DNA of 64,000 nucleotides from Aeromicrobium sp. Leaf245 (GTDB lineage Bacteria; Actinomycetota; Actinomycetes; Propionibacteriales; Nocardioidaceae): contig NZ_OW824151.1 in the NCBI RefSeq assembly GCF_942548115.1, positions 930,001-994,000 on the forward strand, given 5' to 3'. Below are positions 22,955-47,353 of this stretch, piece by piece. The notes under the pieces are model-generated. The model was not told the origin of the DNA. It did no database searches and worked only from the letters and a program-made list of their open reading frames with translations. The translations under genes and the position numbers were made by a program. Positions within the stretch are counted from its first letter, which is position 1; every line of letters starts with the position of its first letter.

Positions 22955-23176
22955 GGACCGGTGGCGCGGTCGTGCCCGTCGGTGGCCCGGTCCTGACGTT
23001 CTGCGGGTGCGCTGGTGTGGGAGGTCCGAACCCGCTGCTGCGCTGGCTCGGCTCGTGCCGGGGGTGGCCTCCGAAGGGCCCCGACCGAGCGGCTGGAGGC
23101 GTCCTCGGGTCGGGTCCTCGGGCTGCGGCTCGCCCGGGGGTAGGGCTCGTACCTCATCGCGACGCCTTGAGGTTCG

Positions 23177-23220
23177 CCATCTACCTCCGACGGCCTGGTT
23201 CGGTGCACCACCTACCTCCC
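23177..23220. repeat. Repeat family site A: two CTACCTC units
   Basis: CCATCTACCTC (23177-23187) and GCACCACCTACCTCCC (23205-23220) lie in the same orientation, about 28 nt apart. They match the inverted units of the larger palindromic sites at 26358-26470 and 46386-46466, but lack the opposite-strand partners. Confidence 0.45.
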
Positions 23221-24777: not shown

Positions 24778-25862
24778 CCAGTGCCGCCGATCCCACGACC
24801 ACGGAGCCGAGCGCGTACGCCGCGTCCGGAGTCTCGATCGAGGCGGGCGACCGCGCCGTCGAGCTGATGAAGGAGTGGGTCGACAAGGCTCGGCGCCCCG
24901 AGGTGGTCGGTGGCATCGGCGGCTTCGCGGGCCTGTTCGACGCGTCGGCCCTGAAGGACTACCGCCGGCCGCTGCTCGCGACGTCGGCCGACGGCGTGGG
25001 CACGAAGGTGCAGATCGCCCAGCGCATGGACGTGCACGACACCATTGGCTTCGACCTGGTCGGGATGCTCGTCGACGACCTCGTGGTCTGCGGTGCCGAG
25101 CCGCTGTTCATGACCGACTACATCGCGTGCGGCAAGGTCGTGCCCGAGCGCATCGCCGACATCGTGAAGGGCATCGCCCAGGCGTGCGCGGAGTCCGGCA
25201 CCGCGCTGCTCGGTGGCGAGACCGCCGAGCACCCCGGACTGCTGCACCCCGACGAGTACGACGTGGCCGGCTCCACCACCGGTGTGGTCGAGGCCGACGC
25301 GCTGATCGGCGCCGAGCTCGTCCGCCCGGGCGACGTCGTCGTCGCCATGGCGTCCTCCGGCCTGCACTCCAACGGGTACTCGCTCGCGCGCCACGTGTTC
25401 TTCGGGACGGCGCAGTGGTCCCTCGACCGCGACGTGCCCGAGCTGGGTGCCACGCTCGGCGAGGCCCTGCTGACGCCCACGCGCCTGTACACGCTGCCGT
25501 GCCTCGACCTCGTGCGGCGCACGCAGACGCACGCCATGTCGCACGTGACCGGCGGTGGGCTCGCGGCCAACCTCGAGCGAGTGGTCCCCGAGGCCGTCTC
25601 GGTGCGCGTCGACCGGGGCACCTGGGCGCGGCCGGCGATCTTCGACCTGGTGGCCGACCTGGGTGGCGTCTCGCAGGGCGACCTCGAGGAGGCGCTCAAC
25701 ATCGGCGTCGGGATGGTCGCCCTGGTCGCGCCCGACGACGCCGACGCGGCCGTGCGCCTGCTGGGCGAGCACGGCGTGGTGGCCTGGATCGCCGGCGACG
25801 TCGCCGAGGCAGGCGTGCACGGACCGGGCGGCAGCGTCACGCTGGCCGGGACACACGCCTGA
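24774..25862 (+). CDS. purM: Phosphoribosylformylglycinamidine cyclo-ligase (AIR synthetase)
   Basis: Closes FGAM to AIR with ATP, step five of purine synthesis. 362 residues with the family N-terminal YAASGVSIEAGDRAVELMK, the ATP-binding ATSADGVGTKVQIA, the core GFDLVGMLVDDLVVCGAEPLF and the GLHSNGYSLAR and THVTGGGL-like (SHVTGGGLAANLERV) motifs. The GTG start overlaps the purF stop by 4 nt, so both products are made from one message. Confidence 0.97.
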   Translation: MTSAADPTTTEPSAYAASGVSIEAGDRAVELMKEWVDKARRPEVVGGIGGFAGLFDASALKDYRRPLLATSADGVGTKVQIAQRMDVHDTIGFDLVGMLVDDLVVCGAEPLFMTDYIACGKVVPERIADIVKGIAQACAESGTALLGGETAEHPGLLHPDEYDVAGSTTGVVEADALIGAELVRPGDVVVAMASSGLHSNGYSLARHVFFGTAQWSLDRDVPELGATLGEALLTPTRLYTLPCLDLVRRTQTHAMSHVTGGGLAANLERVVPEAVSVRVDRGTWARPAIFDLVADLGGVSQGDLEEALNIGVGMVALVAPDDADAAVRLLGEHGVVAWIAGDVAEAGVHGPGGSVTLAGTHA

Positions 25863-25955
25863 CTCTTCGACCCGGTGCCAGCGACGTTGGCAGGGTTTGG
25901 GTAGGGTGGGCCCCACGACATACTGACGATTTCTTTCTGCGAGGGGGTCGGACCC

Positions 25956-26132
25956 ATGGGGCGCGGCCGTGCAAAGGCAAAGCAGACCAAGGTCGCACGC
26001 GACCTGAAGTACCGGACCTTTGATCCGGACTTCGACGATCTGCAACAGGAACTCCACCACGACTCCGGTGACCCGATCCCGGACCAGTACGCCGATCTCG
26101 CCCAGAAGTACGGGGACGAAGCCGCCAGCTGA
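25956..26132 (+). CDS. DUF3073 small protein
   Basis: A 58-residue basic-then-acidic protein beginning MGRGRAKAKQTKVARDLKY and ending in an acidic stretch before EAAS. This matches DUF3073, a small family found in actinobacteria near purM. Function unknown. The ATG has a GAGGGGG stretch about 9 nt upstream. It lies 93 nt after purM and may be an independent gene. Confidence 0.9.
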   Translation: MGRGRAKAKQTKVARDLKYRTFDPDFDDLQQELHHDSGDPIPDQYADLAQKYGDEAAS

Positions 26133-26513
26133 CGCGGTTCGGCCGTGGTTGCGTGGCCGTCGTCGTGAGGTGGCCGTGGGCTGGCGTCTGCCCGCGAGGG
26201 TGGGTCCGGCGGTGCACTCCGTCGTCGGCGTGCTCTGCGGGTGTGCCTGCTCGGCTGGGGTCGTGTCCTGCGGCTGCGACGACGCGGCTCCGCGTCGACC
26301 TGCGCTCCGAGAGGAGCCTCGGCCGTCGGACGGGTGCGTGCTCGGTCGGGGCCGTCGGAGGTAGGTGGCGCGCGTCATCGGTCCGTCAGAGGTGGGTGGC
26401 GCGCGGATACAGGGCGCCTATCCGCGGCTCACCTACCTCTGACCTGCCCGTTCCGCGCGCCACCTACCTCTCACCCGCTGTGCCCTGGGTGGGGGAGCCG
26501 GCGCCCCGCGGGG
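26133..26513. other. 381-nt intergenic region between convergent genes
   Basis: No convincing coding frame. The first 220 nt show nothing recognisable beyond GC-rich sequence. The rest holds the four-unit palindromic repeat cluster at 26358-26470, which lies between the 3' ends of the DUF3073 gene and the MMPL gene. Confidence 0.7.
26358..26470. repeat. Repeat family site B: nested palindrome of four GAGGTAGGTGG units
   Basis: Unit 1 (26358-26374, GAGGTAGGTGGCGCGCG) is the exact reverse complement of unit 4 (26454-26470). Inside these, unit 2 (26389-26409, starting GAGGTGGGTGGCGCGCGG) faces unit 3 (26419-26439, ending GGCTCACCTACCTC) around a 9-nt loop. The whole can fold as a two-stage hairpin. 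Unit 3 is 20/23 identical by eye to a unit at 46417-46439. Confidence 0.75.
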
Positions 26514-28574
26514 TCAGGCGGAGCGCGACAGCCGGCTCGGCCACCAGAACCGGCGGCCGCACCAGGCGACCAGGGCCGGCGTGACCAGGCCGCGCACCAC
26601 CACGGTGTCGAGCAGCACGCCGAAGCCGACCAGCACGCCCAGCTGGGCCAGCAGCACCAGTGGCAGGACGCCGAGGACGGCGAACACGGCAGCCAGCAGG
26701 ATGCCGGCACTCGTGATCACGCCACCGGTGACGGCCAGGGCCGTGACGATCGACCCGGTCGCGTCCCCCGTCCGACGCATCTCCTCCCGTGCGCGCGCGG
26801 TGAGGAAGATGTTGTAGTCCACGCCGAGCGCCACCAGGAAGACGAAGGCCAGCAGCGGGGTGCCCACGTCCATCGCCGACCAGCCGAGCACGTGGTCGAA
26901 CACGAGCCACCCCACGCCGAGGGCCGACAGGTAGGACAGCACCGTCGTCGACGCCAGCAGCAGGGCCGCGACCACGGAGCGCAGCAGCAGGAGCAGCATG
27001 CCGAGCACGACGGCCAGGACGACCGGGATGATGACGCCGCGGTCCCGGGCTGCGGTGTCGGCCTCGTCGAGGGCCTCGGCGTCCTGGCCACCGACCAGGG
27101 CGTCGGGGTCGACGTCCTGCACGGCGGTGCGCAGCAGCCCGACCGTCCGCAGGGCCGCTTCACTGGACGGCTCGTCGCTCAGCACCACGCTGACCTCGGC
27201 GATCCCGTCGCCCTCGCGGCCCACCTCGGCCGAGCGGACGTCGGGCACGTCGCCCGCGGCACGGGCCACCTGCTCGGCCCGCTGGGGCGTGGTGACGATG
27301 CTCGTCGGCGCCGACGAGCCGGCCGGGAAGGCCGACGACAGCGTCTTCTGCGCGGTGATCGACTCCGGGGTGTCGAGGAACTGCTCGTCCTGGCCGAGGC
27401 CGGTGCGCAGCCCGAGCGTGCCGAGGGCCATCAGGACCAGGATCACGAGGCCGCTGACGGTCACGACGACGGGACGACGGGTCACGGTCGTGCCGACCCG
27501 ACGCCAGAGCCCACGCTCGGACGGGTCGGGGTCGCCGACGCGGGGCACGAACGGCCAGAACAGCCAGCGTCCGGGCAGCGTCATGGCGGCGGGGAGGACG
27601 ACCAGGGCGAAGAAGACGGCCACGACGATGCCCGCAGCACCGGACAGGCCGATGCGGCTGACGAACGGCGCGTCGGCCAGGAGCAGCGCCAGCAGGCCGA
27701 TCACGACCGTGCCGGAGCTCGACAGGATGGCCGGTGCGGCTGCGCCGACGGCCTGACGCATGGCCTCGCGGCGATCCTCGTGGCGGCGCAGCTCCTCGCG
27801 GTAGCGCGCGATGAGCAGGAGTGCGTAGTTGGTGCCGGCGCCGAACACGAGCACCGACGTGATGCCGGTGGTCGAGCCGTCGATCGGGATGTCGGTCAGG
27901 CCCGAGATGGCCTCGACGACCTTCGCGGCCACGCGGTCGCCGAGCCCGATGACGATCAACGGGACGAGCCAGAGCCACGGGCTGCGGTACGTGACGATGA
28001 GCAGCAGGGCCACCACGATCGCGGTCGCGGCGAGCAGGCGGAAGTCGGCGCCCTCGAAGACGGCGCCGAGGTCGGCCTGGACGGCCGGGGCGCCCGTCAC
28101 CTCCGCGGTCAGGCCGTCGGGCAGGGCCTCGCGGACGTCGGCCCGCAGGTCCTCGATCCGCTCGGAGTTCTCGTCGGTGCCGACGCCTCCGGGCAGGGGG
28201 ACGGTGAGCAGGGCGACCGTGCCGTCCTGCGACGGGACGGGTCCGGCGACCTCGCTGTCGAAGGACGATCCCAGGTCCTGCGAGAGCCGACCCAGGGCAG
28301 CCAGCTGCGTGCGGTCGATGCGCTCGCCGCCGTTGGAGACCACGACGATCGCGGGAGCGTCCTGGCCTCCGGGCAGGTCTGCCAGCCGGTCGCGCGCGAT
28401 CGCGGACTCGGCGTTGTCGGGCAGGTTCACGGAGGCGTCGGTGCTCTCCGTGGGCCCGGGGGCCAGAATGAGAACGGCTGCCGAGAGCACGAGCCCGAGC
28501 AGCAGCACGACGACGGACCGCCTCGGGCCGACGAGCCGGGCGAGGGGGAAGGTTCGATGATCGAAAGTTTCCAC
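26514..28574 (-). CDS. MMPL family transporter
   Basis: An RND-superfamily membrane exporter (686 aa) with two repeats of one helix, a periplasmic loop and five helices. The MMPL signature is seen in VLVFGAGTNYALLLIARYREELR and again as FVFLVALGVDYNIFLTARAREEMR in the second half, where the Asp-Tyr pair carries protons. Family members export lipids or drugs. The GTG at 28574 is preceded at 6 nt by TATCCT. A MarR regulator diverges from it with overlapping promoters and a palindrome, which suggests regulated, inducible export. Confidence 0.9.
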   Translation of the reverse strand: METFDHRTFPLARLVGPRRSVVVLLLGLVLSAAVLILAPGPTESTDASVNLPDNAESAIARDRLADLPGGQDAPAIVVVSNGGERIDRTQLAALGRLSQDLGSSFDSEVAGPVPSQDGTVALLTVPLPGGVGTDENSERIEDLRADVREALPDGLTAEVTGAPAVQADLGAVFEGADFRLLAATAIVVALLLIVTYRSPWLWLVPLIVIGLGDRVAAKVVEAISGLTDIPIDGSTTGITSVLVFGAGTNYALLLIARYREELRRHEDRREAMRQAVGAAAPAILSSSGTVVIGLLALLLADAPFVSRIGLSGAAGIVVAVFFALVVLPAAMTLPGRWLFWPFVPRVGDPDPSERGLWRRVGTTVTRRPVVVTVSGLVILVLMALGTLGLRTGLGQDEQFLDTPESITAQKTLSSAFPAGSSAPTSIVTTPQRAEQVARAAGDVPDVRSAEVGREGDGIAEVSVVLSDEPSSEAALRTVGLLRTAVQDVDPDALVGGQDAEALDEADTAARDRGVIIPVVLAVVLGMLLLLLRSVVAALLLASTTVLSYLSALGVGWLVFDHVLGWSAMDVGTPLLAFVFLVALGVDYNIFLTARAREEMRRTGDATGSIVTALAVTGGVITSAGILLAAVFAVLGVLPLVLLAQLGVLVGFGVLLDTVVVRGLVTPALVAWCGRRFWWPSRLSRSA

Positions 28575-45537: not shown

Positions 45538-46350
45538 GTGCCACACGCTCATGTCAACGGGATCTCGTTCCACTACACCGACTCCGGCGAGCCGTCGCCC
45601 GGTGCGCCGACGCTGGTGATGGGCCACGGCCTGCTGTTCAGCGGGTGGATGTTCCACCCGCAGGTGGCGGCGCTGAAGGATCGGTATCGCTGCATCACGG
45701 TGGACTGGCGCGGCCAGGGGGACACCCCGGCCGCAGCGGACCGCGCTGCCGACATGGACTCGCTCACGGGGGACCTGGTGGCGCTGCTGGACCACCTGGG
45801 CCTCGACGCGGTGCACTACGCCGGTCTGTCGATGGGCGGGTTCGTGGGCATGAGGCTCGCGGCCCAACACGCGGAACGGGTGCTCTCGCTCGTGCTGCTC
45901 GACACCAGCGCCGGCCCCGAGGACCCCGAGAAGGTCGCGCAGTACCGCACGCTGGCGCGGGTCTACCGCTGGCTCGGCATGGGGCCGGTGCGCTCGAAGG
46001 TCGAGCCGATCATGTTCGGCCCGGACCTGCTCGGCTCGTCGCGGCGCGACGAGGTCGTCGGCCCGTGGATGGCGAAGCTGGCCACGGTCGACCGCCGAGG
46101 CATGCGCGCGGCGATCCTCGGGGTGACCGATCGCGACCCGATCGCTCCGGAGCTGGACCGGATCGAGGCACCGACCCTGGTGATCGTGGGGGAGGACGAC
46201 GTGGCCACGCCGGTGGCCAAGGCCGAGGCGATCGTGGCCGGCATCGCCGGTGCTCGCCTCGAGGTCGTGCCGAAGGCGGGGCACTCGAGCACCATCGAGC
46301 AGCCCGAGGCCGTGACCCGTCTGGTGGAGGACTTCCTCGCCCGTTTCTGA
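45538..46350 (+). CDS. Alpha/beta hydrolase
   Basis: A 270-residue alpha/beta hydrolase. The nucleophile elbow is GLSMGGF, the oxyanion region is VMGHGLLFSG, the acidic residue is in IVGEDDVATP, and the catalytic His is in KAGHSSTIEQP. It resembles 3-oxoadipate enol-lactonase or ester hydrolases, and the substrate is unknown. The GTG start is preceded at 7 nt by CACCCT, a poor -10 match. Confidence 0.88.
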   Translation: MPHAHVNGISFHYTDSGEPSPGAPTLVMGHGLLFSGWMFHPQVAALKDRYRCITVDWRGQGDTPAAADRAADMDSLTGDLVALLDHLGLDAVHYAGLSMGGFVGMRLAAQHAERVLSLVLLDTSAGPEDPEKVAQYRTLARVYRWLGMGPVRSKVEPIMFGPDLLGSSRRDEVVGPWMAKLATVDRRGMRAAILGVTDRDPIAPELDRIEAPTLVIVGEDDVATPVAKAEAIVAGIAGARLEVVPKAGHSSTIEQPEAVTRLVEDFLARF

Positions 46351-46385
46351 ACGACTGCTCGTGTGGCTGCGGTGCCTCCGGGGCC

Positions 46386-46466
46386 GAGGTAGGTGGTGCG
46401 CGGACACGGCGCCGCCATCCGCGGCTCTCCCACCTCTGGGTGGTCCGGCAGTGCGGGCCACCTACC
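46386..46466. repeat. Repeat family site C: three GAGGTAGGTGG-type units
   Basis: Unit 1 (46386-46404, GAGGTAGGTGGTGCGCGGA) faces unit 2 (46417-46436, ending CTCTCCCACCTC) around a 12-nt loop, and a third inverted unit GCCACCTACC lies at 46457-46466. It sits between convergent genes (alpha/beta hydrolase and gluQ), as does site B. Confidence 0.65.
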
Positions 46467-46492
46467 GCCCGGGGGAAGGGAAAGGGGCGGCC

Positions 46493-47353
46493 TCAGCCGA
46501 CCACGGTCCAGGGCTGCCGCGGGAGTGATGCGGGGTCGAAGGATGCGAGCAGGTCGGACGGGGTGTCACCGCTCAGGCCGAGCGACGCCGTGATCATGGC
46601 CCAGGCCTGGTCGCGGCCGAGCTCGCGGAGCGTGACCGCCCCGTCGCGCTTGGCCAGGCGGACGCCCTGGGTGTTCACGGCGAGCGGCACGTGCGCGTAC
46701 GTCGGCTGGGCGTGGCCGAGCAGCGTGGCGAGGTTGGCCTGTCGCGGCGCCGACGTCAGCAGGTCGTCGCCGCGCACCACCTGGTCCACGTCCTGCGCCG
46801 CGTCGTCGACCACGACGGCCAGGTTGTAGGCCGGCACGCCGTCGTTGCGACGCAGGACGAAGTCGTCCACGGCTCCCTCGACGTCGCCGTGGAGCTCGTC
46901 GTGCACGGTCCACGTGGGCGTCGCGGACCGCAGCCTCAGGGCCGCCGGCCGCTCGGCGGCGCGCGCGGTGCGTTCGTCGGCGGTCAGGTCGCGGCAGGTC
47001 CCCGGGTAGGCACCGGGCGGCAGGTGGGGTGCGCTCGCCGCCTCCTGCACCTCACGACGGGTGCAGAAGCACGGATAGGTCAGGCCCGCCGACTCGAGGG
47101 TGGCGATGGCGGCGTCGACGACGTCGCGACGTTCGCTCTGGCGCACGGCGGGTCCGTCCCAGTCGATGCCGAGGGCGCGCAGGTCGGCCAGCTGCTGCTC
47201 CTCGGAGCCGGCGCGGACGCGGTCGAGGTCCTCGACGCGCATCAGGAAGCTGCGTCCCGTCGAGCGGGCGAACAGCCAGGCGAGGAGCGCGGTGCGGAGG
47301 TTACCGACGTGCAGGTCGCCGGACGGCGAGGGAGCGAAGCGTCCGGCGGGCAT
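46493..47353 (-). CDS. gluQ: Glutamyl-Q tRNA(Asp) synthetase
   Basis: Attaches glutamate to queuosine at the wobble position of tRNA-Asp. 286 residues, a GluRS catalytic core without the anticodon-binding domain. RFAPSPSGDLHVGNLRTAL carries the HIGH-like motif (HVGN), CFCTRREV and YPGTCRD carry the zinc cysteines, and the KMSKS counterpart is RLAKRDG. Its 5' end overlaps the small membrane-protein gene by 53 nt. The presence of gluQ suggests the organism has queuosine. Confidence 0.93.
   Translation of the reverse strand: MPAGRFAPSPSGDLHVGNLRTALLAWLFARSTGRSFLMRVEDLDRVRAGSEEQQLADLRALGIDWDGPAVRQSERRDVVDAAIATLESAGLTYPCFCTRREVQEAASAPHLPPGAYPGTCRDLTADERTARAAERPAALRLRSATPTWTVHDELHGDVEGAVDDFVLRRNDGVPAYNLAVVVDDAAQDVDQVVRGDDLLTSAPRQANLATLLGHAQPTYAHVPLAVNTQGVRLAKRDGAVTLRELGRDQAWAMITASLGLSGDTPSDLLASFDPASLPRQPWTVVG

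What the first reader, a model, noticed from the sequence alone, without database searches (positions are those of the whole stretch)
26358..26470. Nested palindromic intergenic repeat built from GAGGTAGGTGG units
Four units in head-to-head order form a two-stage inverted repeat: the outer arms are 17 nt and perfect (26358-26374 with 26454-26470), and the inner arms about 21 nt. A related block recurs at 46386-46466, and simpler copies at 23177-23220. Both full sites lie between convergent genes. This looks like an undescribed REP-like or terminator-derived repeat family in this genome, possibly mobilised by a transposase elsewhere or acting on mRNA ends.
Basis: seen in the sequence. Interest (0 to 1): 0.62.

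Follow-up and report, generated by a model that had tools for sequence, protein, structure and literature searches.

The report
REPIN-like palindromic repeat without transposase
The marked spot is one of about 48 copies, in this Aeromicrobium genome, of a palindromic DNA repeat that sits between genes, mostly just after they end; it spans a whole bacterial family, looks like the known REP/REPIN repeats, but lacks the enzyme that is thought to spread those.

Summary
At 26358-26470 four units (GAGGTAGGTGGCGCGCG) form a nested palindrome with fixed spacing: same-strand units 31 bp apart, the two head-to-head inner units 40 bp apart. The genome holds 48 such cores, all intergenic. 23 of 42 loci are convergent, odds ratio 7 over other gene pairs, and only 4 are divergent. 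Other Aeromicrobium species carry the same head-to-head core with different stem sequences. Across six species 16 of 21 base pairs show compensatory changes. A covariance model finds the family in 81 of 397 genomes of the order, nearly all in one family, and in only one genome outside that family in a class-wide sample. In about 13-20 sites the core lies inside a larger mirrored island made of other repeats, and four islands of 560-820 bp are 76-85% identical copies. Best reading: a REPIN/BIME-like non-autonomous repeat tolerated, and perhaps used, at gene 3' ends. It is not a proven REPIN: no Y1 (RAYT) transposase was found in the own genome or its relatives. It is no classical terminator: there is no T-tract, and no G-U excess on the transcribed strand. 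Mobility and function are inferred.

The parts
26358..26374 (+). outer left unit GAGGTAGGTGGCGCGCG
26375..26388 (.). 14-nt linker, mostly not complementary to its counterpart 26440-26453
26389..26405 (+). inner left unit (31 bp from the outer unit)
26385..26443 (.). 59-nt core doublet (21-bp palindrome, 9-nt loop) matched by covariance models R1 and R2 on both strands
   Evidence: genome 956385-956443
26423..26439 (-). inner right unit, head-to-head, 40 bp from the inner left unit
26454..26470 (-). outer right unit, perfect reverse complement of 26358-26374
26267..26325 (.). possible degraded outer frame (R1-like 26267-26282 with 3 mismatches; R2-like CTCCGAGAGGAGCCTCGGCCG 26305-26325), left side only
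   Evidence: R2 likeness read by eye
46382..46440 (.). second site, core doublet
   Evidence: genome 976382-976440
46452..46468 (-). second site, outer right unit (degraded)
23133..23191 (.). third site, degraded core doublet between divergent genes
   Evidence: genome 953133-953191
23202..23218 (-). third site, outer right unit, 31 bp from the inner one (23177-23187)
23067..23129 (+). frame module R2-R3 next to the third site (84% to query)
   Evidence: genome 953067-953129
25956..26132 (+). DUF3073 gene whose 3' end faces the site
26514..28508 (-). MMPL-family transporter gene whose 3' end faces the site
45538..46350 (+). alpha/beta hydrolase gene left of the second site
46493..47353 (-). 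Glu/Gln-type tRNA synthetase catalytic-domain gene right of the second site

Best explanation
This is one copy of a dispersed, non-autonomous palindromic repeat of the REP/REPIN/BIME kind, belonging to a family spread through the Nocardioidaceae. The invariant element is a head-to-head doublet of about 17-21-nt half-units whose starts are 40 nt apart. In Aeromicrobium extra half-units are added in tandem at mostly 31 nt. Shown: intergenic dispersal, fixed geometry, paired-arm covariation, differing stem sequences between lineages, near-identical composite copies, patchy species distribution, and excess at convergent 3' ends. Inferred: the element spreads by copying (single-strand hairpin or recombination based, mobiliser unknown), its arms are kept complementary at the DNA level, and it survives at gene 3' ends because insertion is harmless there. 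A secondary role as barrier to read-through or RNA decay between convergent genes is possible but not shown.
For: 49 exact units vs 1 control; 48 distinct cores with R1. Spacings +- 71 (34x), +- 102 (20x), ++/-- 31 (19x each), +- 40 (18x). All 48 cores intergenic: 27 convergent, 17 tandem, 4 divergent; by locus 23/42 convergent, odds ratio 7.0, p = 3e-8. Same avoidance of divergent sites in other species: 26 convergent, 31 tandem, 3 divergent of 62. The 40-nt doublet is found in every species group, outer spacing varies (29, 31, 32, 41, 73). Covariation 16/21 pairs, score 0.446 vs 0.171 shuffled and <=0.104 slid. Within-species identity exceeds between-species in G014 and G009 (0.77-0.79 vs about 0.6). 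Four islands share 457-768 bp at 76-85% in both orientations. At the finding's own locus the two nearest relatives (85% and 81% at the MMPL protein) lack the element. Order scan 81/397, class scan 13/297 with a single genome outside the family.
Against: No Y1/RAYT gene in own and 30 relatives or in 26 mostly copy-rich genomes. No insertion boundary or target duplication was resolved. Some sites are occupied at the same gene neighbourhood in other species, which a purely neutral mobile element does not require. Unit-internal hairpins, a REP hallmark, are clear in the same-family genomes but not in subtype A of this genome. In own genome mean within-species identity (0.664) does not exceed that to G005 (0.670), as two subtypes are mixed.
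Confidence: 0.62

Rival explanations
1. Bidirectional transcription terminator / mRNA 3'-end stabiliser family: the hairpin is transcribed from either side of convergent genes and stops or protects transcripts.
For: 3'-end location, closer to the upstream gene end in 34 of 48 tandem sites; strong fold; at the finding's locus most relatives that keep the DUF3073-MMPL pair have their own, unrelated hairpin in place of the element; other strong hairpins somewhat rarer at flanking gene ends once the element is masked, 26% vs 40% (a weak difference, not formally tested).
Against: No T-tract. No excess of G-U over A-C mismatches on the sense strand in tandem sites (39 vs 37), none overall (33 vs 27). 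Arrays often have unequal numbers of units on the two sides. At one site a tRNA already has a canonical hairpin terminator before the array.
Confidence: 0.3
2. Array of DNA-protein binding sites: half-units spaced by three helical turns (31 bp) and arranged head-to-head bind an oligomeric protein (chromosome organisation, supercoiling barrier, roadblock).
For: Rigid 31-bp spacing with poorly conserved linkers; unequal arms; no strand bias; other repeats of the same islands have 30- and 32-nt periods.
Against: Outer spacing differs in other lineages (29, 41, 73); stems change sequence between species while staying complementary, unusual for one conserved binding protein, although GGTRGG mostly stays.
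Confidence: 0.2
3. True REPINs whose RAYT has been lost or is too divergent for Pfam Y1_Tnp.
For: Doublet anatomy and extragenic clusters match REPINs (PMC3116915); GTAG inside the unit.
Against: No Y1_Tnp in any genome searched, including genomes with many copies; the GTAG lies inside the palindrome, not beside it.
Confidence: 0.2
4. Chance GC-rich palindromes.
For: High GC makes weak palindromes common.
Against: (shuffles, reversed control, slid pairs, near absence outside the family).
Confidence: 0.01

Closest known systems
REPINs of Pseudomonas fluorescens (REP doublets forming hairpins, PMC3116915)
   Same: Short extragenic units, mostly inverted doublets around a central loop, clusters, species-specific families, hairpin-forming.
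   Different: No RAYT/Y1 transposase found; half-units added in tandem at 31 bp; a GTAG lies inside the stem rather than at its foot; occurs in actinomycetes.
E. coli BIMEs (mosaics of REP units and other motifs at gene 3' ends; from general knowledge)
   Same: Mosaic intergenic islands with inverted units, at 3' ends, rare between divergent genes.
   Different: Different units; larger mirrored frame (R1-R2-R3); gyrase/IHF binding unknown here.
Intrinsic (hairpin) terminators
   Same: Strong stem at gene ends, often between convergent genes.
   Different: No T-tract; repeated, multi-unit, unequal arms; no strand-specific wobble tolerance.

Membership tests
REPIN/RAYT | Short unit over-represented in extragenic DNA | tested here: met
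REPIN/RAYT | Units mostly as inverted doublets that can form a hairpin | tested here: met
REPIN/RAYT | Single unit is itself an imperfect palindrome with a GTAG-type tag at its foot | tested here: inconclusive
   Unit hairpin visible in same-family genomes (CGGTGG-GTGAT-CCACCG, L195) and subtype B, not in subtype A; GTAG lies inside the palindrome
REPIN/RAYT | Associated RAYT (Y1 transposase) in the genome | tested here: not met
   (PF01797; positive controls rang)
REPIN/RAYT | Excision or transposition of doublets | not testable with these tools
   no strain-level reads; only copy similarity, and absence in relatives
Intrinsic terminator | Stem-loop followed by T-run | tested here: not met
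Intrinsic terminator | Located at transcript 3' ends | tested here: met
   (position relative to predicted genes only)
Known Rfam family | Match above gathering score | tested here: not met
   (only sub-threshold microRNA models)
MITE (DDE-type) | Terminal inverted repeats with target duplication and cognate transposase | not tested
   copy boundaries not resolved; one search shows homology running nearly from gene to gene

The most novel reading that the evidence does not exclude
A family of REPIN-like palindromic replicators in Nocardioidaceae that spreads without a RAYT, by an unknown mobiliser or a host replication/recombination pathway, and builds nested mosaic islands in which unrelated half-units share a period of about 30-32 nt.
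Probability: 0.35. Interest if true: 0.75.

Novelty: new variant of a known kind. Interest (0 to 1): 0.5.

Why it matters
REPINs are the classic case of short sequences that persist in bacterial genomes with a dedicated transposase. A widespread, structurally constrained, lineage-specific counterpart without that enzyme would ask what else can spread and homogenise palindromes, and whether 3'-end placement is only tolerance or a function. The rigid 31/40-bp geometry gives clear predictions for protein binding and for cruciform or hairpin intermediates.

Tried and rejected
Rfam scan of ten loci: only sub-threshold microRNA models. Exact-pattern scan of genome contigs: none, near records may be left out. 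The search for related loci was run with an out-of-frame ORF (24875-26020) by mistake; it still gave Aeromicrobium records and the DUF3073-MMPL locus, but used the last genome-contig scan. Y1 transposase: none. Plasmids and phages: no match. Literature searches for REPIN-like repeats in Actinobacteria, Aeromicrobium or Nocardioides: nothing relevant found in the open-access library. RNA-strand test by G-U versus A-C mismatches: no bias. Terminator-replacement test: direction as expected but weak. Looking for an autonomous element between facing frame modules: found only an integrase-core (rve) gene inside one island of G005, read as a later insertion. A second Fisher value printed (convergent vs divergent IGRs >=100 bp) used a hand-entered background count and is not relied on.

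Full report
OBSERVATION. The sequence at 26358-26470 is as described: two 17-nt perfect outer arms and two 21-nt inner arms with mismatches. The unit GAGGTAGGTGG is far above chance in the window (48 vs 17.1 +/- 4.0 at <=2 mismatches) and in the genome (49 exact vs 1 reversed control). The folded strand has z = -7.7. The second site (46386-46468) is a degraded three-unit version (z = -2.0). The third (23133-23218) is a degraded doublet between divergent genes, not convergent ones.

ANATOMY. In 320 kb around the exact sites the distances between units are rigid: same strand 31, head-to-head 40, 71 (40+31) and 102 (40+62). The unit consensus is about GTCA-GAGGTAGGTG-(G/A)-CGC(G/A)C-(C/G)-GAA-(T/C)-CGG. 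Two subtypes differ in the inner stem (A: CGCGCGGATA, B: CGCACCTCAT). Arms are often unequal, for example 3 plus / 2 minus units at 604 kb and 2/3 followed by 1/3 at 554 kb. The 14-nt linkers are mostly not paired. A covariance model of the 59-nt core finds 48 distinct cores, nearly all on both strands because the element is palindromic.

CONTEXT. With a codon-usage gene caller trained on the window, all 48 cores are intergenic: 27 convergent, 17 tandem, 4 divergent. By locus, 23 of 42 are convergent (odds ratio 7.0, p = 3e-8). In relatives 26 of 62 are convergent, 31 tandem, 3 divergent, 1 inside a predicted gene, 1 undetermined. In tandem sites the element is nearer the upstream 3' end in 34 of 48. 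30 of 42 own loci lie in the first half of the contig.

RELATIVES. The genus is Aeromicrobium: genome G052 contains a 67,775-base contig, the same length as that of Aeromicrobium sp. CnD17-E, with the same intergenic sequence. Copy number is patchy: 24 of 49 genomes with model R1, with many copies in own, G005, G052, G014, G009, G049 and G057. The broader model R2 adds further genomes of the genus. The 40-nt doublet is seen in every species group, while outer units sit at 31 in most Aeromicrobium, 29 or 31-32 in G005/G052, and doublets repeat at about 73 or 41 in another genus of the same family, probably Nocardioides (inferred). Across six species 16 of 21 pairs have compensatory changes; the covariation score is 0.446 against 0.171 shuffled and at most 0.104 for slid pairs. 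G-U and A-C mismatches are equally common, so nothing points to selection on one RNA strand. R2 hits 81 of 397 genomes of the order and 13 of 297 of a class-wide sample, 12 of them in the own family; the scan scored few candidates per genome, so counts are lower bounds.

HISTORY. At the finding's own locus (DUF3073 facing an MMPL gene) the nearest relatives G005 and G052 have a plain hairpin and no element; other species have yet other hairpins. Other sites are occupied in more than one species (own 242043 and G052 L135; own 1533979 and G005/G052; own 1611499 and near it in G002). There the copies of own and G005/G052 are no more alike (0.60-0.64) than paralogues (0.60-0.70), whereas G005-G052 orthologues are 0.90-1.00 alike. 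This fits turnover, gene conversion or re-insertion at favoured places; I cannot separate them.

LARGER ISLANDS. In about 13-20 sites the core is framed by mirrored motifs: R3, R2 (CCTCCGAAAGGGCCTCGACCG) and R1 (CCTGCGGCTGCGCTGC, in 31-32-nt tandem). The frame is a dispersed family of its own in own genome and G005. It also encloses other palindromic cores, such as AGGATTCTGCCTTCG units at 30-31-30. Intergenic direct repeats peak at a shift of 31 (931 vs mean 35). Four islands of 560-820 bp are 76-85% identical over hundreds of bases in both orientations, which shows copying of whole islands.

MECHANISM. Most likely a non-autonomous mobile palindrome (62% for the statement as a whole). Shown: dispersal, geometry, covariation, copying, 3'-end preference. 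Inferred: spread as a hairpin/doublet, unknown mobiliser, tolerance at 3' ends, possible barrier role. A RAYT is absent from every genome searched for it, so membership in REPIN/RAYT is not claimed; it looks and may work like one.

NOVELTY. No Rfam family and no matching paper found in the open-access library. I rate it a new variant of a known kind.

Noticed in passing
L221, L224, L225, L226; genome 640608 and 2850683: A second palindromic core family (AGGATTCTGCCTTCG units, geometry 30-31-30 head-to-head) lies in the same kind of framed island or beside the GGTAGG array; further related cores (GGATTCTCCCTTCTCGTGGACC and others) share the islands.
   Followed up: partly
genome-wide; window 23067-23129: Frame module R1-R2-R3 (CTCCGAAAGGGCCTCGACCG etc., R1 in 31-32-nt tandem arrays) is a separate dispersed repeat, at least 30 hits each in own genome and G005.
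   Followed up: partly
L219:1603-3401 (G005): A gene with an integrase-core domain (rve), by its neighbouring reading frame IS30-like, sits inside a palindromic island and interrupts it.
   Followed up: partly
own genome: 30 of 42 element loci lie in the first half of the single contig (p = 0.008); the position of the origin was not established.
   Followed up: partly
own 1533470-1533800, L118, L132: A tRNA gene has a canonical GC-hairpin terminator upstream of the array; in own and G052 the terminator stretch appears duplicated.
   Followed up: no
L184-L195: In other genomes of the family each unit is itself a small hairpin (e.g. CGGTGG-GTGAT-CCACCG), which subtype A of this genome does not show.
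   Followed up: partly
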